From the NCBI GenBank assembly GCA_026986005.1, contig JALSPK010000134.1, positions 1-33,490 of the forward strand: a DNA stretch of 33,490 bases. The letters are read 5' to 3'. A program made the position numbers and the translations under genes. The first letter of the stretch is position 1. Each line of letters begins with the position of its first letter. This stretch comes from Saprospiraceae bacterium (GTDB lineage Bacteria; Bacteroidota; Bacteroidia; Chitinophagales; Saprospiraceae). The notes beneath the pieces are model-generated. The model saw nothing but the letters and a program-made list of their open reading frames with translations. It did no database searches and had not been told where the DNA came from. Shown in pieces: positions 11,569-32,983 of this stretch.

Positions 11569-11572
11569 GTTC

Positions 11573-15692: not shown

Positions 15693-16448
15693 TTAATCAA
15701 ATCCTTGTAAAAAACTTAACAGAACTTTTTTATTTGCTCTGCTTACAGGGATTTGAACATTGTTGTTAAGAATCAGATATCCTCCATCTCCCCTTATATA
15801 TTTAAAAACATGATTCATATTGACATAATAAGATTGATGAGCTCTAAAAAATTGAGATAAGGGTAGCATTTGTACAAACTCTTTTAGTGTTTTTGAAATG
15901 ATAAACTTTTTCTTATGATTTGTATAAATCCAAGTGTAATTGCTTTCTGATTTTGCATAGATAATATCTTCTATTTTTATGAATTCAAAACCTGAAGATG
16001 TTGGAAGTGCTATACTTTTAAAGCTTTTTTGGTTGATCTGTAAATTTAAATTGTTGACTAATGCTTTCAAATGACTAGCATCAAGTTTTTCATTTTTTTT
16101 ATCAATTACTTTTTGTATTGAGTTAACCAACTGAACTTTTCTTATCGGTTTGAGCAGATAGTCTATTGCATTAAACTCAAAAGCTCTAATTGCATATTCA
16201 TCAAATGCCGTGATAAAGATTAAATCAAAATTAATATCATCTAATGATTGAAGTAATTCAAAACCTGACAATTTTGGCATTTCTATATCTATCATTACCA
16301 ATTCAGGTTGCATTTCATTTATTGCATCCAAGCCATTGAATGGACTATCATATGTCCCTATGATTTCTATTTTGGGACAATAAGCATTTAATTCAATAGA
16401 CAAAGACTCTAAACTATCTCTTTCATCATCAATTATTAGGGTTCTCAT
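15693..16448 (-). CDS. LytTR-family response regulator
   Basis: The 251-residue protein has an N-terminal receiver domain (1-120) with Asp7/Asp8, phospho-acceptor Asp54 in LVMIDIEMP, Thr80 and Lys100 (LLKP). A LytTR DNA-binding domain follows (about 145-250), recognisable from IIYAKSESNYTWIYT, FFRAHQSYYVNMNHV and a final QIPVSRANKKVLL. It should be phosphorylated by the LytS-type kinase encoded just upstream, whose 3' end it overlaps by 20 bp. Targets are not shown by sequence. The divergent surface-protein operon from 19876 is the obvious candidate, but no convincing LytTR direct repeat was found in the intergenic region. Confidence 0.92.
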   Translation of the reverse strand: MRTLIIDDERDSLESLSIELNAYCPKIEIIGTYDSPFNGLDAINEMQPELVMIDIEMPKLSGFELLQSLDDINFDLIFITAFDEYAIRAFEFNAIDYLLKPIRKVQLVNSIQKVIDKKNEKLDASHLKALVNNLNLQINQKSFKSIALPTSSGFEFIKIEDIIYAKSESNYTWIYTNHKKKFIISKTLKEFVQMLPLSQFFRAHQSYYVNMNHVFKYIRGDGGYLILNNNVQIPVSRANKKVLLSFLQGFD

Positions 16449-19400
16449 AAGGCATTGATATTTTGATTAGTGTTCCTAAAGGTTGATTTTTATCGTTATA
16501 TTTATCTATAATTTCCGTTTTTATCCCCAAGATGCTTGTCGAATTTAAAAGGGATATTCTCTCTTTAGTTATTCCAAGCCCCATCGATTTATACTTTAAA
16601 AAAGATTTGCTTTTTATTTCTTTTGCTTTGATTCTCCCAATACCATTATCTTCTATCTCGCAAATTACAAAATTATTTTGTAAAAAGAATCTTATTGTTA
16701 GTTTTCTGTCTTTTTCTTTATGGAGCAGACCATGCCAAATAGCATTTTCTATGTGCGGCTGTAGTATCATAGGAGGTATATTTACTTTAGTCAAGTCAAT
16801 AGATTTATCTATTCTATAATCTGTTATGAATTTATCTTTAAATCTTAATTTTTCCAGATCCACATACAATTTGATCATGTCTATTTCTTCCTTTAGAGAG
16901 ATCTGTCTTTCTCTAGAGTATTGTAAAATTAAACGTATTAAGTGAGAAAAGTTAGAGAGGTATTCAGCTGCTAATATCGGTTCGTGTTTTAAGATGTAGT
17001 TCTTTATGGAGTTAAGGCTATTAAACATAAAATGAGGATTCATTTGAGAACGTAAAGCTTTTAATTCTAGACAAGCTAGCTGTTTCTCATATTCTGATTT
17101 TAAATGTTCTTTTAATTTCAATCGTTTAGTATTCCATGAATGAAAAATATAAAGAATTGCAAGAAGTAAACTGCTTGAAAATATAATAAACCACCATGTT
17201 CTCCAAAATGGAGGAACGATGGAAAAAGATAATCGTACGGGGGAACTCCATATTTGAGATTCGTTTTTTGACTTAACTAAAAATGTATAGTTCCCCGGGT
17301 TTAAATTAGGGTAGTTTGCAACTTTCACTTTAACTGCTGGTTTTTTCCAATCATGGATTCCTTCTAATTTGTATTGATATTTTATTCTGTTAGGATTACT
17401 GAAGTTGATCGTTGTAAATTCTATTGAAATATCATTTTTTTCATATTGAAAATATAATTTATTTTTTATCTTGTTTCCATTAATATGGGTAAGACTATCA
17501 CCTGATGTAATTGATTTTATAATAGGTTTTGTCGGTTTTCTATATTTGTAACAGTTCTTTGTGTTAAGTTTTGAATAACCTAATTCATGAAATAAAACTA
17601 ATTTATCGTCGATATATCTCATGCCAATGATATTATTATCCAATAATCCATTTTCTTTGGTGAAATTTGAGAACCTATTGATATTTGGAAGAAATAATGA
17701 AAGACCTGAAGCAGAAGATGCAAAAACACTTCCATTAGGAGTTATCACAAGACTATTAATGCGATTATTTATCAATCCATCACGAGTTGTATATTTTTTT
17801 GATAAATATAGCTTATTGTTTTTTAATCCAAACCTAAAAAGACCATTGCTCCAGGTAGCAACCCAAATTGTGCCTTTCTTGTCAACGATTATTTCATTAA
17901 TACCATTTTTTAAATATGCATTAATTTCACTACCGATGGAATTATTTAATTTTCTAGACACTAAATTATAACATAATAATTTGGCATTTTTTTCTATCCA
18001 AACATTGGACATGTCTTGGTAAAAGAGTCCTCGAGAAAATTCAGTTTTACTATTAGATGAACCAATATGAAATGAATCTATGACATTGTTGAATAAGTTA
18101 AGATAAAAAAGTAGATTTGGTGGTTTGGTGAATATTAGTTTATCTTGTTCTGTATGCGCTACGGAAAAATAACCATCCTTCTCAATTTCCTTACTATATC
18201 TGCCCAATTCTAATTTTGATAAACTTTTTGTTTTTTTATTTACTTTGGCTATTCCGTTTTTAAAAAAAATATAAATGTCATTACCTTTTTGTTCAATAAG
18301 GTGAGGGCTTCTAAAATGCTTTGTTCTATCGTTTAAATCAAAAGTTTTATAAATGCTATCACTATTGTCTTTATATATTACTTTGTCAAAATATGCATTT
18401 ACCAATATGTTAAAGCTATCTGATTCCTCATAATAATCGTGAATATAAAAATTTATATCTGACCCCGGCTCTGTAATACTTATACCGGTGATATTTTGAT
18501 TGTCCGGATTCAAATAACTGATACCTTCCGATGTTCCTAGCCATATTCCTCCTGCATGATCTTTATAGATGGATTCAATAAATTTACTTGGTATGCTTTT
18601 ATTGTTTTTAGGCAATACAATCTCCCATGTTTTTGAATTTGTATCAAAAATTTTCAATCCTAATCCTTTCGTTCCAAGCCAAATTCTATCATGATCATCA
18701 ATAATAATATTCGAATTGACACTATTGGGTTGTATATAATGTTGTACTGATTTTGTTTTTGGATTGAATGATGTTAAACCATCTGAATATCTAGCACTCC
18801 AAACAATTCCTTTTGAATCCAACAAAATTCTGTTCCATATAAGTTGGTCGCTTATTGTTTCTTCAATAACGTTACAGCAACCTGTGTTAATATCGCATAC
18901 ATATAATTCAAATCCTGCTGATACATAAATAGAATCTGTGTTGGGGCAAGGTATAATATCTCTAACGTGCCACTTCAAGGGATTACATACAGGAAAAACA
19001 ATATCTTTCATTCCATTTTTAAGATAAGACAATCCTCTATTTTGACTTCCAAGCCATATTTTTTGATTTTTGTCTATATAAATCTTAAAAAAAGGCATAA
19101 TGCCGATTGAATCAGATTCTTTAGGATAATAGTAAAATCTTTTAGCTTTATTTGTTCTTGTGTTCAATTTGTTAAGCCCTCCCTCGTGAGTACTAATCAA
19201 AATGGTTTTTTCGTCCATGCAAGTTATACTTAGTATATCATTGCTGGAAATAGTTGAAGAATCTTCATCTAAAGAAGTAAAATATTCAAAGTTTTGACCG
19301 TCATACTTCACTAATCCTTCTGAGCATCCCAGCCAAATATAACCTAAAGAATCTTGTCTAATTTTTTTAATATGTTTGTAATATAAGCCATCCCTATGGT

Positions 19401-19476
19401 CAAAATTGGTAAAGTTGTATTGAGAAAAAGACGAGCGAATAAAAATATTGAAAAGAAAAAGTGTAAGAAATGTCAT
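16429..19476 (-). CDS. Propeller-type sensor histidine kinase (LytS-like kinase core)
   Basis: From the chosen start the protein has 1,015 residues: signal peptide (MTFLTLFLFNIFIRSSFS), then a periplasmic sensor of two-component-regulator propeller repeats with recurrent 'GxIWLGTxxGL' signatures (IWLGCSEGLVKY, IWLGTKGLGL, IWLGTSEGISYL, IWVATWSNGLFRF). A Y_Y_Y-type beta domain follows (about 680-745), then a transmembrane helix (about 758-781) and a LytS-type kinase. The phospho-acceptor is His815 in QMNPHFMFNSLNSI; the N-box is HIENAIWHGL (from 908), with DNGIG (942-946) and a GLG motif near 966. The frame continues to an ATG at 19536 (1,035 residues), but a TACCTTTG element sits directly before that ATG, so 19476 is preferred. 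It signals to the overlapping LytTR regulator. Confidence 0.9.
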   Translation of the reverse strand: MTFLTLFLFNIFIRSSFSQYNFTNFDHRDGLYYKHIKKIRQDSLGYIWLGCSEGLVKYDGQNFEYFTSLDEDSSTISSNDILSITCMDEKTILISTHEGGLNKLNTRTNKAKRFYYYPKESDSIGIMPFFKIYIDKNQKIWLGSQNRGLSYLKNGMKDIVFPVCNPLKWHVRDIIPCPNTDSIYVSAGFELYVCDINTGCCNVIEETISDQLIWNRILLDSKGIVWSARYSDGLTSFNPKTKSVQHYIQPNSVNSNIIIDDHDRIWLGTKGLGLKIFDTNSKTWEIVLPKNNKSIPSKFIESIYKDHAGGIWLGTSEGISYLNPDNQNITGISITEPGSDINFYIHDYYEESDSFNILVNAYFDKVIYKDNSDSIYKTFDLNDRTKHFRSPHLIEQKGNDIYIFFKNGIAKVNKKTKSLSKLELGRYSKEIEKDGYFSVAHTEQDKLIFTKPPNLLFYLNLFNNVIDSFHIGSSNSKTEFSRGLFYQDMSNVWIEKNAKLLCYNLVSRKLNNSIGSEINAYLKNGINEIIVDKKGTIWVATWSNGLFRFGLKNNKLYLSKKYTTRDGLINNRINSLVITPNGSVFASSASGLSLFLPNINRFSNFTKENGLLDNNIIGMRYIDDKLVLFHELGYSKLNTKNCYKYRKPTKPIIKSITSGDSLTHINGNKIKNKLYFQYEKNDISIEFTTINFSNPNRIKYQYKLEGIHDWKKPAVKVKVANYPNLNPGNYTFLVKSKNESQIWSSPVRLSFSIVPPFWRTWWFIIFSSSLLLAILYIFHSWNTKRLKLKEHLKSEYEKQLACLELKALRSQMNPHFMFNSLNSIKNYILKHEPILAAEYLSNFSHLIRLILQYSRERQISLKEEIDMIKLYVDLEKLRFKDKFITDYRIDKSIDLTKVNIPPMILQPHIENAIWHGLLHKEKDRKLTIRFFLQNNFVICEIEDNGIGRIKAKEIKSKSFLKYKSMGLGITKERISLLNSTSILGIKTEIIDKYNDKNQPLGTLIKISMPYENPNN

Positions 19477-19543
19477 TCTGACGATTCCTGTGATACGAGG
19501 CAAAATAAATAGTTTTATATTATAGCTACAACTCATACAACCC

Positions 19544-19551
19544 CAAAGGTA
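19544..19551 (-). promoter_or_regulatory. Candidate -7 element for the kinase/regulator operon
   Basis: The minus strand reads TACCTTTG (TAnnTTTG). Transcription would start about at the ATG at 19536, leaving a leader of about 60 nt for a start at 19476. No well-spaced -33 element is visible. Confidence 0.45.
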
Positions 19552-19728
19552 TAATTTTTTATTTTATAAAAACTATTTGACAATGATAAAATTTTGAGAT
19601 TAAATAACCATATTTTTATTGTGCCAAATACTAAAAAAATCGACCGGTTACTAATTTTTAAACAAAATTTGCCTGGATTTTATTTTTTTTTATGTCATAT
19701 GTAAACTATAATTTAAAATCGCCCCAAT

Positions 19729-19736
19729 TAGATTTG
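19729..19736 (+). promoter_or_regulatory. Candidate -7 element for the five-gene surface operon
   Basis: TAGATTTG matches TAnnTTTG. It would give a leader of about 130 nt before the GTG start at 19876. No -33 TTTG lies at the usual distance, so an activator may be needed or the match may be chance. Confidence 0.35.
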
Positions 19737-19875
19737 CACTATTTTTTATTGGACGTATTTAATTTTCATTTCTGTAATCTATCCTTAATTTTATGCTAAC
19801 TACTCATTTGTTTATGAATTGAATGTTGTTTTTATGTAATATTGCTAAAATTAAATTTTTTCAAATTGTATAGAT

Positions 19876-21549
19876 GTGAAAAAGTACTTGATTGTTATAT
19901 TGGTTTTTTTATTTTTTTGCGAACTGGATTTTGCTCAGGAAGTTTATGTTAGTGGTAGGGTGTCAATAAGCACTACCTTTAATACCATTAATGGTATTGA
20001 TGCACGAAAACCCGCATTCTCTTATGTGTTGAACGGTAGTCCTTCGTTGCACATCGGAAGCTTTGTTCTGCCATTTGGGGTGTTATTTTCAAATTATAGA
20101 AGAAATTTCAGTCAACCTTTCAATCAATACGGTATTAGCCCTAAATATAAGGGTATAAAATTGCATATCGGCCATCGATCTATTAATTGGTCAAAATACT
20201 CTATGGGTGGGCACAGATTTTATGGTCTTGGAGGAGAAACAAACCTTGGAAAAATCAGGTTAGGTTATGTTCAAGGAAGATTTTTAAAAGCTACAAATCC
20301 GGATACGACAACAAATTATCGAATAGCATCAAGACCTTCTTTTAAAAGAACCGGATATGCTATAAAATTGGGATTCGGTAATACTAAAACTTATATTGAT
20401 TTTGTCTATTTTAAAGCGAAAGATGATATAAAATCACTTGATTCTGTACAACGTTTAAGGCTTAAGCCAAAAGAAAATACAGTACTTGGATTGAAAGGTT
20501 TGATAAAGATTTCAAAAAAATGGAAGTTCAAATTGGATTTAGGTGTGTCAGGGCTAAATAGAGATAGTCGCAATGATGATATCAGTATTGATTCTACTAG
20601 CGGTGTGATCAAGTTTGCAAAAATAATATTCACACCAAAGGTATCTGCACAAATTTGTGTTGCCAAAGAGTTAAGCTTAAATTATAAATCCAAAAGATTT
20701 GGTATTGATATGAAATATAAAAATATCGATCCCAATTATACAAGTTTGGGGACTTATTATCTTCGAACCGATATATCGCATATTAGTGTTGGATCTTTTA
20801 TCTCTTTAGCTGATAGGAAATATTATTTTAGTTTTAGATATGGAATAGAAAATGATAATGTTCATGAACAAAAACTTCAAACTACTAAACGTACTGTTTT
20901 TTCATCCAATATACTTTTAAGGCCTAATAAATTTTTTGGATTGATGGCTCAATATAGTAATTTTGGGCTATTGCAGGATTCGAAGCTAATAAGTATTTCG
21001 GATACTACAAGACTCAATAATATCATGAAAAGTTTAATTATTAACCCCAATGTAAATATTGAAGCTGCTGGGTTGAATCATAATATATCATTGATTTATA
21101 GCAACCAAACCTTAGATGATAAAAATAAGTTTACTGTTGTATATACAAGCATAAAAACCAAATCGTATACAATTAACTATATAGCAAATCACAAAACGGG
21201 GTGGAGTGGTAGAATTGGTTGGAATAAGAATACAAGCATATTGAGTGCAGGGATTGCTGAATCCAATGGATTTAGTTTTGGACTTAATAAAAGATTTAAT
21301 AAAAAAGGAATATCTGTAAATGCTAGTTTCTTTTACAATCAAAATAAATATGAAAATACAAAAAATGGTTTTACTTCAAGAATATCATCCAATCTGAAAT
21401 GGTCGTTTTTCAAAAATCATTCTATCACAATATCTTATTATAGATTAGTAAATAAATCTTTACACAATGAAGTGTCTTCTTCATTTACAGAAAATAATAT
21501 AAGAACAACATATTCATATAGATTCACTACTAAAAAATCAAGGAAATGA
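19876..21549 (+). CDS. Putative outer-membrane beta-barrel protein, first gene of the TANFOR operon
   Basis: The 557-residue protein has a clean signal peptide (MKKYLIVILVFLFFCELDFA then QEVYVSGRVSIST). The rest is rich in alternating beta strands and aromatic residues (YYFSFRYGIEND, FSFGLNKRFNKKGISVNASFFYNQ, HSITISYYRLVNKS) and ends TTYSYRFTTKKSRK, which suggests a barrel of 20 or more strands. I do not recognise a named family. The start codon is GTG: the overlapping ATG two bases earlier is followed directly by TGA. The stop overlaps the next gene's start by ATGA, so it is coupled to the 1,948-residue protein and may serve as its membrane anchor or export partner (inference). Confidence 0.8.
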   Translation: MKKYLIVILVFLFFCELDFAQEVYVSGRVSISTTFNTINGIDARKPAFSYVLNGSPSLHIGSFVLPFGVLFSNYRRNFSQPFNQYGISPKYKGIKLHIGHRSINWSKYSMGGHRFYGLGGETNLGKIRLGYVQGRFLKATNPDTTTNYRIASRPSFKRTGYAIKLGFGNTKTYIDFVYFKAKDDIKSLDSVQRLRLKPKENTVLGLKGLIKISKKWKFKLDLGVSGLNRDSRNDDISIDSTSGVIKFAKIIFTPKVSAQICVAKELSLNYKSKRFGIDMKYKNIDPNYTSLGTYYLRTDISHISVGSFISLADRKYYFSFRYGIENDNVHEQKLQTTKRTVFSSNILLRPNKFFGLMAQYSNFGLLQDSKLISISDTTRLNNIMKSLIINPNVNIEAAGLNHNISLIYSNQTLDDKNKFTVVYTSIKTKSYTINYIANHKTGWSGRIGWNKNTSILSAGIAESNGFSFGLNKRFNKKGISVNASFFYNQNKYENTKNGFTSRISSNLKWSFFKNHSITISYYRLVNKSLHNEVSSSFTENNIRTTYSYRFTTKKSRK

Positions 21550-24500
21550 AAAGAGTATTTTTATTATTTTGCATCAGTTTTTATATAATCAATGCCAACA
21601 GCCAATTAATTGTAAATACTTTTGTAAATCCTCCGTATTCTCCATATTTTGAAGATTATCTACAATATGATAATAAACTGGTTCTATCTATAAAAAATAC
21701 AAGTAATATAGATATTGAATTTTATTTTAGAGGTAGTATTATTGGTGATAATGGAGTTGAAATTATGACGCAATCAAATTTTAGACCTTCAGAGCCTTTC
21801 ATCGTTTTGGCAGGTCAAACCATGCAATTGACAGGAGGGGATCTAGATCCTTATCTTAATTTTGACAATGTGGATGTCACCGGTATAGAAGTAAATGATA
21901 TTATTGGAGTCGAAGGATTACCTGAAGGACATTATCAGGTATGTATTCAAGCATTTAATTGGGAAAATGATACGCAGGTAAGTGAAGGAGAACCACAGGG
22001 TTGTGCCGATATCTATGTTCAAAATATTGAGCCTTCTATCATTACAACACCTGCTTGTGGTGATACTGTTATAGCTTCAATTCCGCAAAATATCACATTT
22101 TCATGGTCTATTTCTCCGGGGGCTTTGCCTAATACGGAATATATTCTTCAGATTGTTGAAGTTATTGAAGAACAATCTCCTGAATCGGCGATGGAATCTA
22201 TAATTGAGCCGGTTTTTTTTGAAAAACAGGTTAAGGAATTTAGTTATAATTTTGGAGCCGCTGATCCTCAACTCATAGAAGGACACAAATATGCTGTCAG
22301 GGTTAAATCCGTTGACCCTTCGGGTGAAAAAGTTTATAGGAATCAGGGATTTGGTGAAGTTTGTAGTTTTGTCTATGGGAGTTTTGGTACAACAAAAGAT
22401 ACAATTCCTAACGATGGAGACGATATAGCAGTCGGATTTACACTACTGACAAAATTAAATAATTGTACTATCTCAGGTAAGCTTTTGTGTAAAATGCCTA
22501 AAGATCATATGGAGACGAAATCTTTACAAACTTTTATCCCTTTTACTTCGTCTATGATATCAACTGGCGGTATGAGTTTTAATGATTTTAATTTCTCTAC
22601 TACTTCTACTTTTAATGATAATTCGAACAATTCTATTTTTGGTATAGGTAATGACATTATTATTAATAAGGCTTCCATTCCTTCATGGAACAAATATTAT
22701 GAAAAAGATAAAGAGTCAAAAGAAGGAGCGATTCCTCTTTCCAATATGACTATTCAGTTTGTGCCCTCTTTAGTATTACGTAATGCTACTCTAGAAAATG
22801 GTGATGTAGTTCCCTTTGTAGTAATGGGAAAGCCGGAGCAGAATGATAAGATTTTAAATACACTAACTTATAAATTTGGAAAACTCAATACTGATTATTT
22901 GAAAAACATTCCCACAGTAGTGACAACAACTGACAGAAATGGTAATTTTGAGAAAACATTTCATTTGCCAAAACCAACCGGATTTATTGCTGCAAATGTA
23001 AAATGGTTTAGAATGGAAGGTACAATTGAGACATATCGTACAGGCATTAAAAATAATATCAAACAAAATCGTGTTGCTACAGGAGACCTCTATTTTGCAT
23101 ATGTACTGGTAGTTACTGATAATTATGAAAGATTTACCAGCCCCAATACTATTATATTACCTAAAGTAAACGATGCTATACAACTGCCTGACCAAATTTC
23201 ATTAATTCGTGCTTTTCATGTACAAATAACAGTAAGTTCTGCTGTTAGTAATAAAAAATTATTTGATCAAAAAGGAATAATTCCTGGCGCAGAGGTTACT
23301 GTTTTTAGAGAAAAGTCATCTTTTGATGGTGAAAGAAAAGAAATATTAAAACTGGAAGGACAAGAACTTCATGAATGGCGGTACATTGGAGGGAAAAGGG
23401 TGAAAATAGTGTGTAAAGCAAAGACTGATGATAAAGGGATTGTCAAATTAGAGTTTCTTTCAAAATCACCGTCAGAGTATTATTTTCAAGTTCGAACACG
23501 TGACGAAACTAAACTTAAAACCGGTTACGAACCAAACACTTTTTACAATTACAAAACGAAGGTAGGTCTATTGAGTGCTTCTGTTCATAATTATGAATAT
23601 GAGGATGAAGATGTGAAGGATACTACTCAAATTTGGAGTCCTAATTATATCATTCCAGTATATGGTTTCAAAACTTATCTAATTCCCCACCCACCTGAGA
23701 TTAAAGGACGTGTAAGAGAAAAATCCTCCAGCACTAAAACTAAATCAGTAAATGTTCCCGGGCTAAAGGGAGCTACTGTTAGTCTATATAACAAACAAGG
23801 AGGTTCTAGAATTGTAGAAAAAATGCTCAATACTGGTTCTGGAGGCTGGTTTAGGTTTACGAATTTGTGGGTAAAACATAAAAAGGGCATTGCTATAGGT
23901 CCTAAAAGGTATTTGTCTATATGGAAAAAGGGATATAATAGGATATTAAGACCAAATATTGATAGTGATGAGAGTCCTGCTGTGCTATCTTTGGGACAGT
24001 TTTGGTGGCTGGGAGATATAGACCTTTTCCCTGATTCCAAAGTTTCAGGACTTGTTGAGGATGAAGATAACAATGGAGTCGAATCTTATGTCAATATCAT
24101 TGATGGTGCTTATTATAAAACTCAATTAGGAATACGTAAAGCCGGGATTTTTTATAAATTTACTCAACGATTTAAAATGTTTACTCCTACCGGAGGTCAA
24201 TTATTTATTGCCTCGCCATTGTCCAGTAAATATTTTGGTGGATTTCTATTTAAGAACATCCCTGCTAAGGATCCTACACTCATTGATATTGGCCCGGAAT
24301 ATTTTGATGTTGGGAAAATAACAGTATATAAAAAGCTTCACAGAATTAGGGTAGTTGTTGTTGGGCCTGTTGGGCAAAAATTGATTGCAAGAGTAAGTAT
24401 AGGAGACGTTTCTACAATAACTCAAAATGGAGTAGCATTTTTTAAGTTTCCTTCCCAAGCTTCGGATTTTACATTGTCGGTTTATCCCAATAACAAAGAG

Positions 24501-27392
24501 TATATGGAATATCACGAGGTTATACACCTTCCAAATAGCAGCTCGGAAGGAACTAAAAAAGTAAAGTTATACAAAGGTTATACATTAAATGGTCAGGTTG
24601 TAGATAAGACAACGAATCAAGCTGTAAAGGGGGCTAAAGTATCAGTTTTTATTGGCGAATATAAAGGTGCTTCAAAGTATATATCTACAACAACAGATGA
24701 TAATGGAAATTATACTTTAAAAGGTATTCCAACAGATGATCAATCTGAGTGGAATACTATTGAAGTATTCAAAGAGACTGACCCCTCTGCTGGATTTGCG
24801 TACAAAGTTGCTCGGAAAGCAATTAATTTTGGATATGATACTGAAGTGCCATTCATAATCACACAATTGGAAAGAGTGCCTAAAATTAATAATATATGGG
24901 GATATCCACTAGCAATTAATACAATTCACAAAATTTCTTCAAGCAGAATTAAAATATCCGGTTATTTTTATGATATACCAATGGCTGATGGTTTTCAATT
25001 GGCAGATAAAGATCAAAGAATTTACTTTTATAATATAGTTTTGAAAAAAAATGCTGGAGAAGGATTTCTGCCTACAACCAATTCCATTACACTATTTACT
25101 AACGAAATAAATTTTAAAGTTAATAACGTATTTGATGGAGTGCTATTTATGGCATCCGGTTATGGTTCCAATCCAAATTTGCATCTTGTGAAAAATGGAA
25201 ACTCAGAAACTGGGTTTATTGAAGGGATGATGCGTATTGAAGCAAGTTCTTTCAAGTCATCTTACGATTATAGTGGCGACCTATTCATCGGAAACGGTAC
25301 GAGAAAATTTGTTGTAGCATGTAGAAACGATAAAAAGACAAATAATGATAAAGAAAAGTTTGGAGTTTTTCAATTCAGTTTTAGTAATAGATGGAGGAAA
25401 AAAGTCCAATCTGATATTACTGATTTTCATTTATTTGGCTTTTCGGCTGTTGGAGAGAGAACAATGTCCTTTATGGAAGGGGATGAAATACATTTATCAG
25501 CAAGCATACAGACCGATATAAAAAATTGTACTCCATCAAATCTTAATTTCAAAATTGGAGAGATACTCATTACCTCCACTACAGCAGATTTTGTAAAAAC
25601 AGCAGACAATAAGTTAAACTTCAAAATAGATAATTGGGATGTTATTGATAAAAAAGGATGGACCTTTGATAAGAATGAAGAAGCTTTTATCCTTAAAGAA
25701 GTCCTTATTAACACTCATCAAGGAGTTGACTTTAGAGTCAAAGGGATGAGAGTAAAGTATGATGAATTGGCTGAGGGAGAAGTTAGCTCTAAAGGAGGAT
25801 TGACCTTAGGTGGAGTTGTGGATCTTAATATTAGCTCTAAGTCAAATATATCATTTTTTTATGATGAAGGGTCAGCTACAAATGGTCAATACATTATTAC
25901 TGTAACCTCTGCCGCTGGAGGGTATGCTGCACAGACCAACCCATTGCCCGGGTTGACAGGTAGCAATAAACGCTTGGCGTTTGATAATATTACTTTGGGA
26001 AGTGCTGATAAAACACCATCTATGGCTATTTCCATGGAAGTAAAATATCAAAATATTATTGATTTCACTATCTTAGGAATTCAAACTCTTGATGGAGTAC
26101 TAAATATTCAAGGACAACCTGATGTGCATATACCTAATCTTGAGTTGCCTGGCACTATACTGAAATATACTAAAAAAGGAAATAGCATTAAGCATGAAAT
26201 GATTTCTTTGGATGCTGTTGCTGATACTTATGGGGGTGTTCATATCAAATTTGACACTTCTCGCCAGATAATCAACCATAGCCTGTTTGAGACATATGTG
26301 GATATTGCATTGAATCCAAGTAGTGCTATGGAGAGTGAGGGGGAGTCTATTGTACTAAGAGGGCTTTTGACTAAAAAACCTAATTCTTGTAAGATAAAAA
26401 TCATAAAGACTGACTCGGAAGGTAAATTTGAAGATAATAATGGTAAATTTCAAATATTTCCAACAGGAGATCTTGATAAATCTCTTGTTATAAAAAGTGG
26501 GGAGCAAATAGTAACATCCAATAAATGGAAGCCAATGCAATTAAAGGCACTAAGTTCAAATAGCGATGGGATGAATGGGAAAGAGAATGAGTTTAAGTTT
26601 ATAGTTCATGGTGCTATAGATATTGATAATGATGAGGCTAAAATTGATAATATAGACATTGGTATCGGTAAGTTGGATATGACGTATAATTGGAGCGACC
26701 AAAGCATAAATGGCTCTCTGATGATGAGAGTAAATATTCCCTGTGGTCCTGTAACATTAGTGAAAGGAGGAACGGGATTTTGTAGATTTGGAAGTGGTGG
26801 GTTTTATATTGGATATAGTGGAAGTCTTACTATAAGTGGATTTAATGTAACTAATGCTTCTATGGTCTTAGGTTGGCATGATAATGTATTAGATAAGCAT
26901 AAAAATTTAGCAATTGGTTATTTTATTAATAAATCATTAATTAATAAAACGCAGATATCCGAAGGTAAAGTTCATGGTATTTTTATTGGAGCTCAAAAGA
27001 TATTTTGGAATGATGAGATATATTTGGGAGTTCCTACCTTTTTTATCAATACAAATGCCGGAATGGAAGTATTTTTGGAAGCAAGTTTTAAAAATCCAAT
27101 AAGCATGACAATAGGGGGATTTGCAACAGCTAGAGGAGCTGTAATATGTAAGCCTCCCGCGGTAGATGCATATTGTATAACTGGAGCGGCAGCTAATGTT
27201 AGTCTATTGGGGCAATATAAAGATAGTCAAATGAATATTGATACCAAGGGATCATTAATAATTGATGTTGCCGCAGTAAAAGCTGAATTATGTATGAGTC
27301 TACATCTTGGTACATCAGATCCCAAATTTGATGTAGATATTAGTTTGGGGAATTGTGGTGAAGACAGCTCTGATTTGAGTTCATGTCCCTAA
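21546..27392 (+). CDS. Giant TANFOR-like, multi-domain exported protein
   Basis: The 1,948-residue protein has a signal peptide (MKRVFLLFCISFYIINANS). Residues about 20-165 resemble the TANFOR domain known from Tannerella and other Bacteroidota: two-part pattern with 'PPYSPYFEDY...', long beta strands and a final LPEGHYQVCIQAFNW...QGCADI. A fibronectin-like sandwich follows (about 170-280). Several carboxypeptidase-regulatory-like beta modules occur in the middle, clearest at about 1010-1070 (LNGQVVDKTTNQAVKGAKVSVF...DDNGNYTLKGIP) and a weaker one near 715-800. The C-terminal 900 residues are beta-rich, with no domain I can name and no T9SS sorting tail. The role is probably structural at the cell surface. 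TANFOR assignment is from memory of the family and needs a profile search. It is coupled by overlap to the upstream barrel gene. Confidence 0.82.
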   Translation: MKRVFLLFCISFYIINANSQLIVNTFVNPPYSPYFEDYLQYDNKLVLSIKNTSNIDIEFYFRGSIIGDNGVEIMTQSNFRPSEPFIVLAGQTMQLTGGDLDPYLNFDNVDVTGIEVNDIIGVEGLPEGHYQVCIQAFNWENDTQVSEGEPQGCADIYVQNIEPSIITTPACGDTVIASIPQNITFSWSISPGALPNTEYILQIVEVIEEQSPESAMESIIEPVFFEKQVKEFSYNFGAADPQLIEGHKYAVRVKSVDPSGEKVYRNQGFGEVCSFVYGSFGTTKDTIPNDGDDIAVGFTLLTKLNNCTISGKLLCKMPKDHMETKSLQTFIPFTSSMISTGGMSFNDFNFSTTSTFNDNSNNSIFGIGNDIIINKASIPSWNKYYEKDKESKEGAIPLSNMTIQFVPSLVLRNATLENGDVVPFVVMGKPEQNDKILNTLTYKFGKLNTDYLKNIPTVVTTTDRNGNFEKTFHLPKPTGFIAANVKWFRMEGTIETYRTGIKNNIKQNRVATGDLYFAYVLVVTDNYERFTSPNTIILPKVNDAIQLPDQISLIRAFHVQITVSSAVSNKKLFDQKGIIPGAEVTVFREKSSFDGERKEILKLEGQELHEWRYIGGKRVKIVCKAKTDDKGIVKLEFLSKSPSEYYFQVRTRDETKLKTGYEPNTFYNYKTKVGLLSASVHNYEYEDEDVKDTTQIWSPNYIIPVYGFKTYLIPHPPEIKGRVREKSSSTKTKSVNVPGLKGATVSLYNKQGGSRIVEKMLNTGSGGWFRFTNLWVKHKKGIAIGPKRYLSIWKKGYNRILRPNIDSDESPAVLSLGQFWWLGDIDLFPDSKVSGLVEDEDNNGVESYVNIIDGAYYKTQLGIRKAGIFYKFTQRFKMFTPTGGQLFIASPLSSKYFGGFLFKNIPAKDPTLIDIGPEYFDVGKITVYKKLHRIRVVVVGPVGQKLIARVSIGDVSTITQNGVAFFKFPSQASDFTLSVYPNNKEYMEYHEVIHLPNSSSEGTKKVKLYKGYTLNGQVVDKTTNQAVKGAKVSVFIGEYKGASKYISTTTDDNGNYTLKGIPTDDQSEWNTIEVFKETDPSAGFAYKVARKAINFGYDTEVPFIITQLERVPKINNIWGYPLAINTIHKISSSRIKISGYFYDIPMADGFQLADKDQRIYFYNIVLKKNAGEGFLPTTNSITLFTNEINFKVNNVFDGVLFMASGYGSNPNLHLVKNGNSETGFIEGMMRIEASSFKSSYDYSGDLFIGNGTRKFVVACRNDKKTNNDKEKFGVFQFSFSNRWRKKVQSDITDFHLFGFSAVGERTMSFMEGDEIHLSASIQTDIKNCTPSNLNFKIGEILITSTTADFVKTADNKLNFKIDNWDVIDKKGWTFDKNEEAFILKEVLINTHQGVDFRVKGMRVKYDELAEGEVSSKGGLTLGGVVDLNISSKSNISFFYDEGSATNGQYIITVTSAAGGYAAQTNPLPGLTGSNKRLAFDNITLGSADKTPSMAISMEVKYQNIIDFTILGIQTLDGVLNIQGQPDVHIPNLELPGTILKYTKKGNSIKHEMISLDAVADTYGGVHIKFDTSRQIINHSLFETYVDIALNPSSAMESEGESIVLRGLLTKKPNSCKIKIIKTDSEGKFEDNNGKFQIFPTGDLDKSLVIKSGEQIVTSNKWKPMQLKALSSNSDGMNGKENEFKFIVHGAIDIDNDEAKIDNIDIGIGKLDMTYNWSDQSINGSLMMRVNIPCGPVTLVKGGTGFCRFGSGGFYIGYSGSLTISGFNVTNASMVLGWHDNVLDKHKNLAIGYFINKSLINKTQISEGKVHGIFIGAQKIFWNDEIYLGVPTFFINTNAGMEVFLEASFKNPISMTIGGFATARGAVICKPPAVDAYCITGAAANVSLLGQYKDSQMNIDTKGSLIIDVAAVKAELCMSLHLGTSDPKFDVDISLGNCGEDSSDLSSCP

Positions 27393-27430
27393 ATGAAAAT
27401 TTAAACTATGAAATATAAAATAAATGCACT

Positions 27431-28900
27431 ATGAAATATATATTATTATTTTTAGTATTTATACCTTTACTTAGTCTAAAAGGACAGACATATTGGAAGG
27501 GAACTAAATCTAAAGGTATTACTCAGCCAGAACTTAGTTGGAAGGCTAAACCGAGGGAGAAGTCTAGGGATTGCATTAAGGTATTTCGCAGCCCAATTGG
27601 TGAAAACAAATTTAAGCCCATCCATACTAGCTTTTATTTTAAAGAAGCCGGAGATAGCTTGCTAGCAGTAGTATTCGATACAACATTGATAGAAAAAAAC
27701 ATCTATGAATATCGTTTACAATGTAAGGAAAAGATTATTTCAGATTTAATCTATGGGCATAATTTGGGTGAGGTTGCATTACCTGAGATACGGTATTTGC
27801 ATGTCGATGAAGTAAAAGGAAAAAGAGCATTGAAATTGGGATGGAAGTTGAGCTATAAGGCTACCGTAACAAGTATAGAATTATATAGAAGTGGATACTA
27901 TAACAAAGGCTATAAGTTAATAGCCACTCTATCAGCAGAAGATACAAGTTATATTGATTATCCCAAATGGGCCAATGAAGCAAGTTATTATTTGCTAGTT
28001 GTAAAGGATCTGTTTGGACAACGTCCACCTACACCACCGGTTCACGGTATTCCTACTCATGACGATCGTCCTTTTGCTCCTCAAAATATTACAGGAGTTA
28101 TGTCAGGAAATATTTTAAACCTGAAATGGGAAAACGTGTCTAGAAATGTATTATGGTATCAGCTATTTGTTGAAGAACAAAATACGAATAGGTACGTATT
28201 ATATAAAAATATTGATGCATATAAACTGGATGACAATTCTTTTAGCATATCAATTGATACAGCTAAAGAAGGAATATTCAATCTGTTTATGACAGCTAAA
28301 TCATCGGGAAATTATGTCAGCGAACCATCAGATACTTTATATTTTGAAATTGTTTCTAAAAAAGCATTGAAGCCACCTATGGGAGGTGATGTAATCAAAG
28401 ATTCATTGAATAATAATATAATAGTATGGGATTTTAGAGCTAAAAATGAAGGAAAAGTAAAAGGATACAACGTGTATGCTTCAAAAAACGGAAAGCATTT
28501 AAAATTAAACCCTTATCCTATTCCGCCTTGGATTAATCACTACAATGTATTAAATAAAGATCAAAATGACACTTATTTTGTTAAGGTTATTAATCGTTTT
28601 GACAAAGAAAGCAAACCACTAAAGATTAAAAATCCGTATTATGATACCAATGCTGAGACCAATGCAGTATTAATGCTTAAAAGTATTGGCAATTTGGCTG
28701 AATTGTCATGGTCTATTACTAACGGAGAAGCACTTTATCTTTATAGGGAGTCAGAAAAAGGAAATAAGAAGTTGTTGACTTCTATACAAAACCCAATAGG
28801 GCACTACTTGGATGCAAATATATTGAAAGGAGGATACACTTATTTTATCCTTTCAAAAAATGTTATAGTATCTAACAAAGTACAATTTATTAAAAATTAA
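27431..28900 (+). CDS. Exported fibronectin type III-like protein
   Basis: The 489-residue protein has a signal peptide (MKYILLFLVFIPLLSLKG then QTYWKG). About four beta-sandwich units follow, of fibronectin type III appearance: 'LKLGWKLSYKATVTSIELYRS', 'LNLKWENVSRNVLWYQLFVEE', 'NIIVWDFRAKNEGKVKGYNVYAS' and 'AELSWSITNGEALYLYRES', each with the Trp-containing B strand and Tyr in the C strand. There is no enzyme motif and no C-terminal sorting domain. It lies third in the operon, 38 nt after the giant TANFOR-like gene, and is preceded by a duplicated start context. It is probably a surface-complex subunit binding its neighbours (inference). Confidence 0.8.
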   Translation: MKYILLFLVFIPLLSLKGQTYWKGTKSKGITQPELSWKAKPREKSRDCIKVFRSPIGENKFKPIHTSFYFKEAGDSLLAVVFDTTLIEKNIYEYRLQCKEKIISDLIYGHNLGEVALPEIRYLHVDEVKGKRALKLGWKLSYKATVTSIELYRSGYYNKGYKLIATLSAEDTSYIDYPKWANEASYYLLVVKDLFGQRPPTPPVHGIPTHDDRPFAPQNITGVMSGNILNLKWENVSRNVLWYQLFVEEQNTNRYVLYKNIDAYKLDDNSFSISIDTAKEGIFNLFMTAKSSGNYVSEPSDTLYFEIVSKKALKPPMGGDVIKDSLNNNIIVWDFRAKNEGKVKGYNVYASKNGKHLKLNPYPIPPWINHYNVLNKDQNDTYFVKVINRFDKESKPLKIKNPYYDTNAETNAVLMLKSIGNLAELSWSITNGEALYLYRESEKGNKKLLTSIQNPIGHYLDANILKGGYTYFILSKNVIVSNKVQFIKN

Positions 28901-28910
28901 AATTATTATT

Positions 28911-30644
28911 ATGAAAAATGTATTACTATTTATTTTTATTGTTATTATTAGTTTTGGTTTATCAGCACAGGATCTGGGTTTCAATTATCAAACAGTCGTA
29001 AGAAATTCTAATGGAATAGTGGCAAACCAAAATGTAGCGATTACTTTTATTGTAACTACCAAGTCCCATGTGTTGGTAGAGGAACATCAAGTAACTACCG
29101 ATGAGCATGGATTGATTAATTTGGTTATTGGCTCAGGTACCCCCTCAGCATTTAAGGATTTCGATTGGTCAGATGGGAATGCTACTATTCAAGTGAAGAT
29201 GGTGGTCGATAATGAGACTATTGATACCGGAGCAAAACCATTACAAGCTGTTCCTTATGCTTTTTATGTACCTGGGTTAAAAACAAAAGATATTGTTAAT
29301 ATTAAAGAAGCTGATGCTGAAAATGGAGATGTGCTACTTTACGATGATGGAGATTGGATCAGTACACCTCTTCAGGATAGAGATAATCAAACATTATCCC
29401 TAAGCGGTACAACATTGAGCATAAGCAATGGAAATTCAATAAATTTGAATGAAATAACCACAGGAGGAGATGGTTGGGGCAGTCAATTGGCAGAGACCGA
29501 AGGAAGAATCGATGGAGATGGGACATCTTCAAATCCAATACAATTATCTACAACAAATGTTTCGGAAGGAGAGTATCTTACCTTTGATGGAAGCCAATGG
29601 CAGACATCTGATTATCACGGGGTGGAAAAAATTCTAGCGGGCTCAGGAATGCAAGTCTTTGACAATGATAATGGTGAAACAACTGTTGCTGCCCTTAGAT
29701 ATGATGCGCTATGGAATGCAGAGAAACTAAGAGGTAATACTATTACAGCTGAACAACCATCAGATGGCCAGGTTTTGGTTTATAATCAAAGTCAGCAACA
29801 ATGGGGACTTGGGGTTTTGCCGGCAGAAACCGGTTGGATAAAAGAGTATATAGGCTCCGGATCTGATGGTTATTGGAGAAATTATACAGACTACAAAACC
29901 TTTATAAATCATTATCTTGAAGTAGAATACAACATAAGTACAAATAATCAAATTTCAGCATGGGGTGATGGTTATAATACTCTAAGGGGAAATACTGTTC
30001 TAGGGCCGGGTTTTGGAAATGCAACTCTCTCCGTTACCGGTGGGTCAGATATATCTTTAGGAGATAATTCAGGAGGAGTTCTGACTGTTGGAGATATTAG
30101 TGGTAATCATTTGGCTATGGATGGAAATGAAATAATGGCGAAAGGATCAGGTAGTTCGGAGGGAACACTTTTTCTCCAAGTTGAGGGAGGTAGTGTCAAA
30201 GTGGGAGGAGGGGCATCTTACCCCTCTCATATATTTCAGGTAGGGGGTATAGCTCGTTCAACTCAATCGACTTGGGCTACTTCAAGTGATGAAAGAGTAA
30301 AAAGGAATATTCATGGATTTCCTTATGGTCTTAAAGATATATTAGCATTAAGACCTGTTCAATTTGATTGGAAAGACATTTATAAGAAGGAAAACAAAGG
30401 CTTGAAGGATGGAAAACTTGGATTTATCGCTCAGGAAGTTGAAAAAATTATTCCTGAGATGGTATCTACACATGAAGAACACATAGGAAATGAATCAATA
30501 AAGGACTTTAGATCAATCAATATGGATCCTCTATTTCCTGCTTTAGTCCAAGCAGTCAAAGATCAACAAAAATTAATTGATGAACAGCAAAAACGAATAG
30601 ACGATCTGGAAATCTTAGTAAAAAAATTAATTCAAAAAAAATAG
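28911..30644 (+). CDS. Fibre protein with C-terminal S74 intramolecular chaperone
   Basis: The 577-residue protein has a signal peptide (MKNVLLFIFIVIISFGLSAQ). An N-terminal domain (about 22-125) is typical of Bacteroidota fibre proteins (FNYQTVVRNSNGIVANQNVA... to PLQAVPYAFYVPG). A Gly/Asn/Thr-rich beta-stalk follows to about 445, then a Peptidase_S74 domain (about 450-545). TSSDERVK gives Ser459 and Lys464, the five-residue Ser-Lys spacing of the self-cleaving endosialidase chaperone. KLGFIAQEVEKIIPEMVS is the second hallmark, and a short coiled coil ends the protein. S74 domains drive trimer assembly of phage tail spikes and then cut themselves off. A trimeric surface fibre is therefore likely. 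It is not a prophage gene here: the neighbours are exported cell proteins. Confidence 0.9.
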   Translation: MKNVLLFIFIVIISFGLSAQDLGFNYQTVVRNSNGIVANQNVAITFIVTTKSHVLVEEHQVTTDEHGLINLVIGSGTPSAFKDFDWSDGNATIQVKMVVDNETIDTGAKPLQAVPYAFYVPGLKTKDIVNIKEADAENGDVLLYDDGDWISTPLQDRDNQTLSLSGTTLSISNGNSINLNEITTGGDGWGSQLAETEGRIDGDGTSSNPIQLSTTNVSEGEYLTFDGSQWQTSDYHGVEKILAGSGMQVFDNDNGETTVAALRYDALWNAEKLRGNTITAEQPSDGQVLVYNQSQQQWGLGVLPAETGWIKEYIGSGSDGYWRNYTDYKTFINHYLEVEYNISTNNQISAWGDGYNTLRGNTVLGPGFGNATLSVTGGSDISLGDNSGGVLTVGDISGNHLAMDGNEIMAKGSGSSEGTLFLQVEGGSVKVGGGASYPSHIFQVGGIARSTQSTWATSSDERVKRNIHGFPYGLKDILALRPVQFDWKDIYKKENKGLKDGKLGFIAQEVEKIIPEMVSTHEEHIGNESIKDFRSINMDPLFPALVQAVKDQQKLIDEQQKRIDDLEILVKKLIQKK

Positions 30645-30648
30645 AAAA

Positions 30649-31122
30649 ATGAAATCAAATATTCTTATCTTATTCCTTTTACTCCTTTCAGGCATGTCAC
30701 TATCAGGACAAGATTTTAATCTTGAAGTACTTGCTGCGGATGGAGAATGCTTTTCGAGCGGCAGCATAAGTGGCTCTTATACATTGGGAGAAGTCGTTAT
30801 AGGTGGAGGGACAAATGGTAATCTTAACTTTGATCAGGGATTTCAACAATCTGATAATGGTATTGTAGCAACAACTGCAAGGAATATACCTAAGATTGAA
30901 GTTTTTCCAAATCCTTCTTTCGGTATTTTTACAATAAAATGTAATGAATTAATATTGGAAGTATATTTGTATTCAGATACTCGCAAATTGATATTAAAAT
31001 CATTTCCTATGGTATCTACTCTTTCTATTAACATGACTCGTTTAAATACCGGTATGTATTACCTTCGTTTAGTTACAAAAGGGAAATCAATATTTAGGAA
31101 AATAGTAAAAGTGTCGAGATAG
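30649..31122 (+). CDS. Small T9SS type A sorting-domain protein
   Basis: The 157-residue protein has a signal peptide (MKSNILILFLLLLSGMSLSG then QDFNLEVLAADG). A short domain with the common pattern SGSYTLGEVVIGGG...LNFDQGFQQ follows. A type A sorting domain then runs from about 85 to the end: IEVFPNPSFGIFTI, a middle strand pair, LNTGMYYLRLVTKGKSIFRKIVKV. T9SS would carry it across the outer membrane and attach or release it. It is the last gene of the operon, 4 nt after the S74 gene, and the only member with a recognisable T9SS tail. Confidence 0.88.
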   Translation: MKSNILILFLLLLSGMSLSGQDFNLEVLAADGECFSSGSISGSYTLGEVVIGGGTNGNLNFDQGFQQSDNGIVATTARNIPKIEVFPNPSFGIFTIKCNELILEVYLYSDTRKLILKSFPMVSTLSINMTRLNTGMYYLRLVTKGKSIFRKIVKVSR

Positions 31123-31764: not shown

Positions 31765-32983
31765 CTATTGCTTAATAATGATCGTGCTCTTTTGAGCCTG
31801 TCCACTAATGCACTTCAGAATATACATGCCCGCAGGTAAGACGCTCAAGTCAAGGTGGTTTTGTTTTGTGGCAGTGATTAAAAGACGCCCATTCCTATCT
31901 GATATTTCTATCCTTGAGACGGGAAAATCCGATCTTGTATGAACGAAAATATCCGTATCAAAGGGATTGGGATAGACCAATGGGCTTATTTCTTTTAGGT
32001 TAGAAATACGGGTGGTAATAACTTCCGACCAAAAGCGCTTTTCTTCTCTGCCTATGTTCCAACTTTCGATATCTTTATCCCATAGGCTTACAATTATGAC
32101 CATCAGATTATCATTGATATCGTAAGTTTCGTTGACTTTTATGTGTTTTTCCCATTTGGTGTTGGTGGCGTTCCACTGATTTATAACAAGACTATCCAAG
32201 AGCGCTTTTTCATTGTGATAATAATGACGCAAGGTCTTATTTTCCCAGTCGTTTTTAGAAATGTTATAATTCATTGTGATATTAACTTCCAGTAGGGAAG
32301 GATCCTGCCATGTGAATAAATCTTTAAACCTAGAGATCCATTTCAATTTCTTTGTGTCCCAGGTCTGATAATAGCTTAGGATGACTTTTCCATCTGGGTT
32401 GAAGGTTCGAATACTTCGGGAGAAATTTATCCATTTATCCAATGTCTTATCCCACTTTTGTTGTAGGTGGATGGTGTCGAGCCCGTCCGAATTGAAAGTA
32501 ATCTCACGCCTGTAAGTGTTATACCACTTCTTTGAGTTTTTGTCCCAGTTTTGGGTAAGGGAATGTATTGCCATACGATGGGCATTATAAGACCAATCTA
32601 TCTTTGAGCTATTTATCCATATTTTATTTATGGTATCCCAGATTTGACCTATATAGTGAATGCGTTGATCTTTATTGTCATATTCGTATGTATTGTTATA
32701 GGCCGTATAAAAACGCTTATTTGCTTCGTCATATACAGAAATTAGTGCATCTGTAAGGCGTCCTTTTTCATCTATGCAATTGAGTTGTTTTCTATAAAAT
32801 TGCAAGCTATCTCCAACCAACTTAAAATATTGTATTGAATCATTTTGCCATCTACTATTGGTGGCGGAATAGGGGGGGGGCGCTTGAATTTTGAAGGTCA
32901 AAACCGAGCGTGTTTTGTGCATAATTAGGGTTAAAACCAGCTAGTATGGCCAGTAGGGTAAAAAGGTAATTCATACGATTCAT
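31765..32983 (-). pseudogene. WDx5W-repeat T9SS type A protein, frame-shifted at a run of nine C
   Basis: The minus strand from ATG 32983 encodes a good signal peptide (NYLFTLLAILAGFNPNYAQN). This frame runs through nine C (32872-32880 as G on plus) and stops at 32855. The body continues in the next frame to 31765 and can be read back only to an unlikely start at 32922 (MHKTRSVLTF). Removing one C joins signal and body into one frame of about 405 residues. The body contains six clear repeats of W[DN]x5W spaced about 40 residues (WDTINKIW, WDKNSKKW, WDKTLDKW, WDTKKLKW, WNATNTKW, WDKDIESW). A type A sorting domain ends it (PLVYPNPFDTDIFV to MYILKCISGQAQKSTIIIKQ). It may be phase-variable, truly broken, or a sequencing error. 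Function of the repeat is unknown. Confidence 0.75.
32872..32880. repeat. Homopolymer G9 (C9 on the coding strand)
   Basis: Nine consecutive G on the plus strand lie just after the signal peptide of the WDx5W-repeat gene, in a context where 8 or 11 bases would restore a single frame. It is a typical site for slipped-strand mispairing and is conspicuous in AT-rich DNA. Confidence 0.9.

What the first reader, a model, noticed from the sequence alone, without database searches (positions are those of the whole stretch)
16429..31122. Sensor kinase/LytTR pair divergent from a five-gene surface-assembly operon
The operon encodes a putative barrel, a 1,948-residue TANFOR-like protein, an Fn3-like protein, an S74 self-processing fibre and a T9SS type A protein, with spacings of -4, 38, 10 and 4 nt. 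All five have signal peptides. The combination looks like a surface appendage or matrix in which an S74 domain templates a trimeric fibre and the barrel anchors the giant subunit. A propeller sensor kinase points away from it across 339 bp and may control it. I know of no characterised system with this gene set.
Basis: partly seen in the sequence, partly recalled or inferred. Interest (0 to 1): 0.65.

Follow-up and report, generated by a model that had tools for sequence, protein, structure and literature searches.

The report
Barrel-giant-Fn3 surface cassette in Bacteroidota
This gene row is a real, widely shared bacterial cassette pairing an outer-membrane pore of an unnamed family with a giant secreted protein, probably for displaying adhesins or, in a few relatives, toxins on the cell surface.

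Summary
In detail: seven ORFs, spacings and the 339-bp divergent gap are as stated. The row is not unique. Its first three genes (outer-membrane barrel, giant with a TANFOR-like N-domain, Fn3-repeat protein) form a cassette across Bacteroidota: of 124 barrel loci I fetched and could call, 84 read barrel-giant-Fn3, 8 giant-Fn3-barrel, 11 run off the contig. Barrel and giant N-domain distances correlate strongly (rho 0.84, 86 triples), barrel and Fn3 weakly (0.17). The barrel family is unnamed (0 of 71 in NCBIfam); its model (pLDDT 88) is a barrel of about 24 strands. The S74 gene and small T9SS protein are an accessory pair. Two-component genes recur beside cassettes in one locus set (43 of 64 against 6 of 40 control windows), less clearly in the other (14 of 48). 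Nearest known: TANFOR polymorphic toxins (PMC7073777), with Fn3 and T9SS neighbours but no barrel mentioned. The window giant is below the TANFOR cut-off, with no toxin domain and no T9SS signal found. Best reading: a barrel-linked surface-display cassette with exchangeable cargo, a new variant of a known kind. Contacts, export route and regulation are untested.

The parts
19876..21549 (+). Outer-membrane beta-barrel, 557 aa, GTG start; core gene 1; unnamed family
   Evidence: ORF; AlphaFold2 pLDDT 88.4, pTM 0.79, about 24 strands by my count; 0 of 71 members in NCBIfam, 1 of 71 in Pfam; matches in 35 of 100 genomes, own included
21546..27392 (+). Giant secreted protein, 1,948 aa; core gene 2
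   Evidence: ORF; giant is next gene in 70 of 74 and 40 of 54 barrel loci (in the first set 69 by N-domain profile, 1 by length); no family in its last 300 aa
21546..22385 (+). N-terminal region of the giant (residues 1-280), TANFOR-like: the part most widely shared
   Evidence: 58 of 63 matches to the whole giant lie inside residues 1-365; TIGR02542 E 6.5e-4, below cut-off
24123..26885 (+). C-terminal half of the giant (residues 860-1780), conserved in a subset; all-beta, with a CarboxypepD_reg domain
   Evidence: 23-49 of 132 sequences align between residues 875 and 1775; PF13620 residues 1013-1065; model pLDDT 76.5, pTM 0.54
27354..27386 (+). Two cysteines in the last 12 residues of the giant (1937, 1947)
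   Evidence: 32 of 115 giants have two or more Cys in the last 30 aa; internal control mean 2.8, maximum 9 in 500 draws
27431..28900 (+). Fn3-repeat protein, 489 aa; core gene 3
   Evidence: Family within five genes downstream in 58 of 70 and 30 of 40 barrel-giant loci; fn3 in 24 of 41 members, no Por_Secre_tail listed
28911..30644 (+). S74 protein, 577 aa, putative self-processing fibre; accessory
   Evidence: PF13884 50.6 bits; PDB sequence relatives 7dc3 and 6f45
30285..30302 (+). SDERVK, an SDxxxK motif (residues 459-464)
   Evidence: motif named as S74 catalytic motif in PMC10769870 (passage)
30649..31122 (+). Small T9SS type A protein, 157 aa; accessory partner of S74
   Evidence: PF18962 and TIGR04183 above cut-off; 6 of 7 small genes beside S74 in other cassettes also carry PF18962 above cut-off
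16429..19536 (-). Propeller sensor kinase (Reg_prop, Y_Y_Y, His_kinase), divergent from the cassette
   Evidence: homologous kinase (E 3.3e-95) beside the second cassette on C172
15693..16448 (-). LytTR response regulator, overlapping the kinase by 20 nt
   Evidence: one of six LytTR matches in the genome
19537..19875 (.). Divergent intergenic region, candidate control region; one imperfect 17-nt direct repeat
   Evidence: the repeat may be chance in AT-rich DNA; no binding site shown

Best explanation
Genes 1-3 are a cell-envelope display cassette. Shown by sequence or model: a barrel of about 24 strands, a giant without a recognised T9SS signal whose N-terminal 280 residues are its most shared part, and an Fn3-repeat protein also without such a signal, kept together across Bacteroidota. 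Inferred: the barrel sits in the outer membrane and holds, and perhaps passes, the giant by its TANFOR-like N-domain; the variable middle and beta-rich C-terminal half project outward as a stalk; the Fn3 protein is a co-subunit. Inferred: an exchangeable cargo slot beside the trio carries an adhesin or fibre. Here that is an S74-processed trimeric fibre with a small T9SS-A partner; elsewhere SprB-repeat or MopE-repeat proteins, or a nuclease-tipped second giant. Inferred: a local two-component pair sets expression; here a propeller kinase with LytTR.
For: Order in 124 called barrel loci: 84 barrel-giant-Fn3, 8 giant-Fn3-barrel, 11 barrel-giant at a contig end. Barrel-giant gap at most 50 nt in 67 of 70 and 33 of 40 loci. 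Other direction: 16 of 20 loci that I chose from giant hits hold a barrel within 20 kb. Controls: barrel 0, giant 0, Fn3 1 of 40. Distances barrel-giant N-domain rho 0.84 against 0.17 for barrel-Fn3. Barrel model. Cargo: SprB repeats in 4 of 10 neighbours scanned, MopE repeats in 2; S74 + small T9SS-A; nuclease tips in 2 of 116 giants. Two-component: 43 of 64 named loci against 6 of 40 controls, p 1.3e-7; seven regulators scanned are 3 LytTR, 3 LuxR, 1 OmpR type.
Against: No contact, export or expression data. The distances share one species tree; all three pairs, barrel-Fn3 and giant-Fn3 included, exceed every one of 500 permutations, and Fn3 repeats align poorly, so co-evolution is not proven. 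In set 1 the two-component excess is not significant (14 of 48 against 6 of 40, p 0.09); the named set holds many related species and its controls come from other genomes. Twelve of 124 loci have barrel-giant without Fn3 next to it (in L112, L114 and L152 it lies further on) and 9 show neither order. The C-terminal model is moderate (pTM 0.54), so surface exposure is not shown. SprA is in 99 of 100 relatives, so its presence cannot tell whether export needs T9SS. S74 linkage is weak: 7 of 112 loci against 0 of 40, p 0.11.
Confidence: 0.57

Rival explanations
1. Polymorphic-toxin locus: the giant is a TANFOR toxin exported by T9SS, as proposed in PMC7073777, and the neighbours assist delivery.
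For: N-domain related to TANFOR (45 of 74 N-termini scanned at E 1e-3); two of 116 giants carry nuclease tips; Fn3 and CTD neighbours match that paper.
Against: No toxin domain found in the window giant; 114 of 116 C-termini match no Pfam toxin family at E 1e-3 and none of 116 matches Por_Secre_tail or CHU_C; the C-terminal half is conserved in a large subset. New toxin families would be missed by such a scan, as that paper itself found one.
Confidence: 0.18
2. A three-gene cassette plus an S74/T9SS-A pair that merely lies beside it; the five genes do not work together.
For: S74 is common: 339 matches in 71 of 100 relatives; S74 in 6 of 48 set 1 and 1 of 64 named loci of 18 kb or more, together not significant against 0 of 40 (p 0.11); position varies, before the barrel or after Fn3.
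Against: Set 1 alone exceeds the controls (p 0.02); same strand with 10- and 4-nt gaps here; S74 lies in the same locus in L067, L072, L085, L086, L088, L099 and L101, with a CTD-bearing small gene beside it in 6 of these 7.
Confidence: 0.3
3. Periplasmic or lipid-handling bridge: the giant is a long beta-groove protein working with an outer-membrane barrel on lipids or polysaccharide, not a surface appendage.
For: Foldseek lists LptD and ApoB100 rows for the giant's C-terminal half at very low TM; rows for the barrel include the alginate exporter AlgE.
Against: TM-scores of those rows 0.08-0.14 on the query; domain-level rows are transthyretin-like and pilin-like modules and generic porin sheets; several neighbours are surface-type proteins.
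Confidence: 0.08

Closest known systems
TANFOR polymorphic toxins of Bacteroidetes (Jana, Salomon and Bosis 2020, PMC7073777; parts 1-3 of 6 read, plus a term search of the main text)
   Same: Giant secreted proteins with an N-terminal TANFOR-type domain, Fn3 and T9SS-CTD/SprB neighbours
   Different: Window giant is below the TANFOR cut-off and no toxin was found in it; the terms barrel, porin, two-component, sensor and S74 do not occur in that main text
PorP/SprF carriers of type B CTD adhesins (PMC9143113, passages read)
   Same: An outer-membrane barrel paired with a giant surface protein and thought to anchor it
   Different: Those are 14-strand FadL-type barrels with type B CTD cargo; here about 24 strands and no CTD found in the giant
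MAT/S74 fibres of Bdellovibrio (PMC10769870, passages read)
   Same: S74 domain with SDxxxK, N-terminal signal-like segment, weak match to the MAT N-domain
   Different: NF053851 at 22.6 bits, cut-off 60; here beside T9SS and barrel genes
MtrB, barrel of the Mtr complex (PDB 6r2q_B)
   Same: Best structural match of the barrel: Z 19.2, rmsd 6.1 over 449 residues
   Different: 11% identity; other barrels follow at Z near 15-16; no cytochrome family among the Pfam hits of the operon

Membership tests
TANFOR domain (TIGR02542) | Score at or above the curated cut-off of 67 bits | tested here: not met
   15.5 bits, 19.6 bits on 330 aa; 0 of 395 phylum genomes drawn pass it, 13 match at E 1e-3
TANFOR polymorphic toxin | C-terminal toxin domain | tested here: not met
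   No Pfam family at E 1e-3 in the last 300 aa; an undescribed toxin would not be seen
TANFOR polymorphic toxin | Fn3 and T9SS-CTD genes nearby | tested here: met
   CTD; Fn3 by family membership, not by a hit of the window protein itself
T9SS substrate (giant) | Recognised type A or B C-terminal domain | tested here: not met
   No Por_Secre_tail, CHU_C or TIGR04183 match
T9SS type A substrate (157-aa protein) | Por_Secre_tail above cut-off | tested here: met
   30.8 against 27; 36.5 against 23
S74 intramolecular chaperone | PF13884 above cut-off with SDxxxK motif | tested here: met
S74 intramolecular chaperone | Trimerisation and self-cleavage | not testable with these tools
   Needs protein
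Mosaic adhesive trimer (NF053851) | N-domain above the cut-off of 60 bits | tested here: not met
   22.6 bits, residues 9-81
PorP/SprF | 14-strand barrel and sequence-family match | tested here: not met
   About 24 strands in the model; only YfaZ (1 of 71) in Pfam and nothing in NCBIfam; strand number of PorP-like proteins from PMC9143113; that Pfam holds a PorP/SprF model is recalled
MtrB | Family membership and a cytochrome partner | tested here: inconclusive
   Fold resemblance only; no PDB sequence hit at E 1
LytTR two-component pair | His_kinase plus receiver-LytTR regulator | tested here: met

The most novel reading that the evidence does not exclude
The barrel is the dedicated outer-membrane translocon or sheath for TANFOR-type giants, with the N-terminal 280 residues as docking signal: a two-partner export and display system, independent of the T9SS C-terminal signal, spread over Bacteroidota. 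It would supply the export route left open for TANFOR toxins.
Probability: 0.22. Interest if true: 0.82.

Novelty: new variant of a known kind. Interest (0 to 1): 0.52.

Why it matters
TANFOR toxins are known, but how they leave the cell was left as a hypothesis (T9SS). An unnamed barrel, present in 16 of 20 loci that I chose from giant hits and diverging in step with the giant's N-domain, is a concrete candidate partner and a gene to delete in strains of genera such as Pedobacter, Runella, Spirosoma or Dyadobacter. It also points to a barrel family that the libraries searched here do not name.

Tried and rejected
Rejected: an obligate five-gene complex (S74/T9SS-A too scattered). Rejected: a recognised T9SS tail on giant or Fn3 protein. 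Rejected: PorP/SprF identity for the barrel. Uninformative: T9SS co-occurrence (SprA matches in 99 of 100 relatives, 97 above cut-off). C-terminal barrel in the giant: residues about 1689-1936 match porin-like sheets (Z up to 12.1, 198 residues), but the model is moderate and the protein ends in SSCP, not in the aromatic residue that I recall as usual for outer-membrane barrels, so no autotransporter is claimed. The cysteine tails recall the SprF twin-cysteine link to GldK (PMC12635249; abstract, outline and passages seen); a lead only, as giants are fairly rich in cysteine elsewhere. LytTR sites: one 17-nt repeat, not interpretable. Promoter and terminator scans: 110 promoter-like sites (85.7 expected, sd 9.2) and 3 terminator-like (7.3 expected), not usable. 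Sequence search of solved structures: barrel none at E 1, giant two rows at E above 0.6. A fold absent from the structural lists is not excluded. Statements on the literature rest, openly licensed PMC papers only.

Rows and weaknesses. Set 1 loci were my choice (40 from barrel hits, 20 from giant hits), not all hits. Profiles for barrel, giant N-domain, Fn3, S74, regulator and kinase were built from set 1, so set 1 counts lean towards them; the named set is independent except that the barrel was its bait. The 132 giants were picked by the N-domain profile and include the window protein and one record pair twice, so their sharing of residues 1-280 is partly by construction; the unbiased figure is 58 of 63 matches. 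'Giant next' also accepts an ORF of 1,000 aa or more: in the named set 69 by profile, 1 (L167) by length. My gene caller drops an ORF that overlaps a longer one by more than 60 nt, so 13 loci show no barrel (7 of 61, 6 of 80), 9 of which had been fetched by a barrel match; they are left out of the 124. L065 and L066 duplicate L123 and L124: left out, not; one search holds one record twice (L066, L124). One search drops barrels under 500 aa. Of the 8 giant-Fn3-barrel loci, 3 have the giant by profile (L106, L117, L170), 3 have an open fragment in a giant cluster (L077, L078, L080) and 2 an open fragment not assigned (L069, L071). Of 129 N-termini listed 74 were aligned and scanned. Control windows were placed by hand on contigs that carry cassettes.
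Full report
What is there. Pfam and NCBIfam confirm the LytTR regulator, the propeller kinase, the S74 domain and the T9SS type A tail; the barrel, the giant's N-domain and the Fn3-like protein have no confident library hit of their own. The window is contig C134 of a 3.8-Mb assembly in 220 contigs. Two genomes of the same genus (L065, L066) match, by length and coordinates, the records titled Saprospiraceae bacterium (L123, L124).

Paralogues in the same genome. Three barrel-giant pairs were found: this one, one on C172 and one on C208 that the contig end cuts. C172 reads barrel, giant, Fn3, then a protein of the SprB-type cluster, with a kinase and LytTR pair convergent on it.

Conservation of order. 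In the named set 74 of 80 show a called barrel; 70 of these have the giant as next gene, within 50 nt in 67 and touching or overlapping in 31; Fn3 follows within five genes in 58 of 70, and 7 of the 12 misses have only one gene left in the locus. In set 1 the figures are 54 of 61, 40 of 54, 33 of 40 and 30 of 40. Over 124 loci, duplicates removed: 84 barrel-giant-Fn3, 8 giant-Fn3-barrel, 11 barrel-giant at a contig end, 12 barrel-giant without adjacent Fn3 (further on in L112, L114 and L152), 9 other. The barrel was the bait for most loci, so its presence is by construction; giant and Fn3 are not. The other way round, 16 of 20 loci that I chose from giant hits contain a barrel. In 40 control windows of 20 kb on cassette-bearing contigs: barrel 0, giant 0, Fn3 1.

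Co-divergence. For 86 loci with all three genes, Spearman correlation of pairwise distances is 0.84 for barrel against giant N-domain (highest of 500 permutations 0.30), 0.17 for barrel against Fn3 (highest 0.13) and 0.14 for giant against Fn3 (highest 0.12). All three share the species tree and the locus, so the large excess for barrel-giant suggests a tight pair; poor alignment of Fn3 repeats could also lower the other two.

Barrel. AlphaFold2 on 71 sequences gives pLDDT 88.4, pTM 0.79. I count 22 strands from residue 94 on plus the N-terminal ones, about 24. The closest solved fold is MtrB (Z 19.2, 449 residues), then various barrels, porins, AlgE and FimD at Z near 15: a large, generic barrel. 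No PDB sequence relative at E 1, 0 of 71 in NCBIfam, 1 of 71 in Pfam.

Giant. With the whole giant as query, 58 of 63 matches in 296 phylum genomes (49 genomes with a match) lie inside residues 1-365. Residues 300-840 are little shared and 875-1775 are shared by 23-49 of 132. N-termini are distant TANFOR relatives: 45 of 74 scanned match TIGR02542 at E 1e-3, yet 0 of 395 genomes reach its cut-off. The C-terminal half is all-beta (pLDDT 76.5, pTM 0.54), with transthyretin-like and pilin-like modules near residues 930-1110 and a porin-like sheet near 1689-1936. Of 116 C-termini none matches a Pfam T9SS tail and two carry toxin domains: a colicin/pyocin-type DNase (also hit by LHH) in L110 and an AHH nuclease in L111. 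In L111 a barrel fragment, a giant and Fn3 precede a second, AHH-tipped giant. Two or more cysteines in the last 30 residues occur in 32 of 115 giants against 2.8 expected from internal stretches.

Fn3 protein. 24 of 41 members hit fn3; no T9SS tail is listed. The window copy is short, 489 aa, most others being 630-780.

Accessory genes. Ten neighbours were scanned: four have SprB repeats (T9SS tail above cut-off in L082 and L068, below it in L071 and in L097, which the stretch end cuts), two MopE repeats (tail above cut-off in L094, just below in L089), one a T9SS tail alone (L072), one an alpha-amylase (L101), one a cyclase with TPRs (L067), one a kinase (L084). S74 proteins lie in L067, L072, L073, L085, L086, L088, L099, L101 and the window; the small gene beside S74 carries PF18962 above cut-off in 6 of the 7 scanned. 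S74 matches number 339 in 71 of 100 relatives. By profile S74 is in 6 of 48 and 1 of 64 loci of 18 kb or more and 0 of 40 controls: p 0.02 for set 1, 0.11 for both together. The window S74 has SDERVK at 459, the motif given in PMC10769870.

Regulation. Regulator or kinase profiles hit within 5 genes before or 7 after 44 of 74 barrels in the named set and 17 of 54 in set 1. For loci of 18 kb or more: 43 of 64 against 6 of 40 controls (p 1.3e-7), and 14 of 48 in set 1 (p 0.09); for the kinase profile alone 10 of 64 and 8 of 48 against 1 of 40 (p 0.03 each). Seven regulators scanned are 3 LytTR, 3 LuxR and 1 OmpR type, which suggests repeated recruitment. This genome has 19 receiver matches, 17 above cut-off, and 6 LytTR matches; two of the six lie beside two of its three cassettes.

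Relation to what is known. PMC7073777 describes TANFOR proteins as polymorphic toxins with Fn3, SprB and CTD genes enriched nearby and hypothesises T9SS export. Its main text does not contain the words barrel, porin, two-component, sensor or S74. Added here: the barrel partner, a core trio without recognised T9SS signals, a majority of giants without known toxin tips, and local sensor pairs. PorP/SprF carriers are the nearest working analogy.

Judgement. A real, conserved cassette, most likely for surface display with exchangeable cargo. The barrel as translocon is possible and not excluded. Contacts, export and regulation are inferred.

Noticed in passing
window 2-9190: A 3,062-aa ORF open at the 5' end; its 3,059-aa part has Ig_7 and CHU_C (type B T9SS) domains: another giant surface protein.
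   Followed up: no
window 9895-12169: An M49-type peptidase gene and a small outer-membrane barrel gene (OMP_b-brl_2) on the same strand, 4 nt apart.
   Followed up: no
window 31765-32922: A second T9SS type A protein, opposite strand, with a sub-threshold DUF3836 match.
   Followed up: no
L064 13880-13942 and 14046-14108: A 63-nt direct repeat (92% identical) upstream of the second cassette's barrel.
   Followed up: partly
L183, L200: Cassette genes on MAG contigs labelled Gemmatimonadetes and Chlorobiota: transfer or mis-binning.
   Followed up: no
L111 5768-12996: An AHH-tipped second giant follows giant and Fn3, with a 218-aa gene after it that could be an immunity protein.
   Followed up: partly
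L109, L112, L113, L121: Barrel version of 815-819 aa in one family (f5) of the same class; L109 and L112 carry two giants per locus.
   Followed up: no
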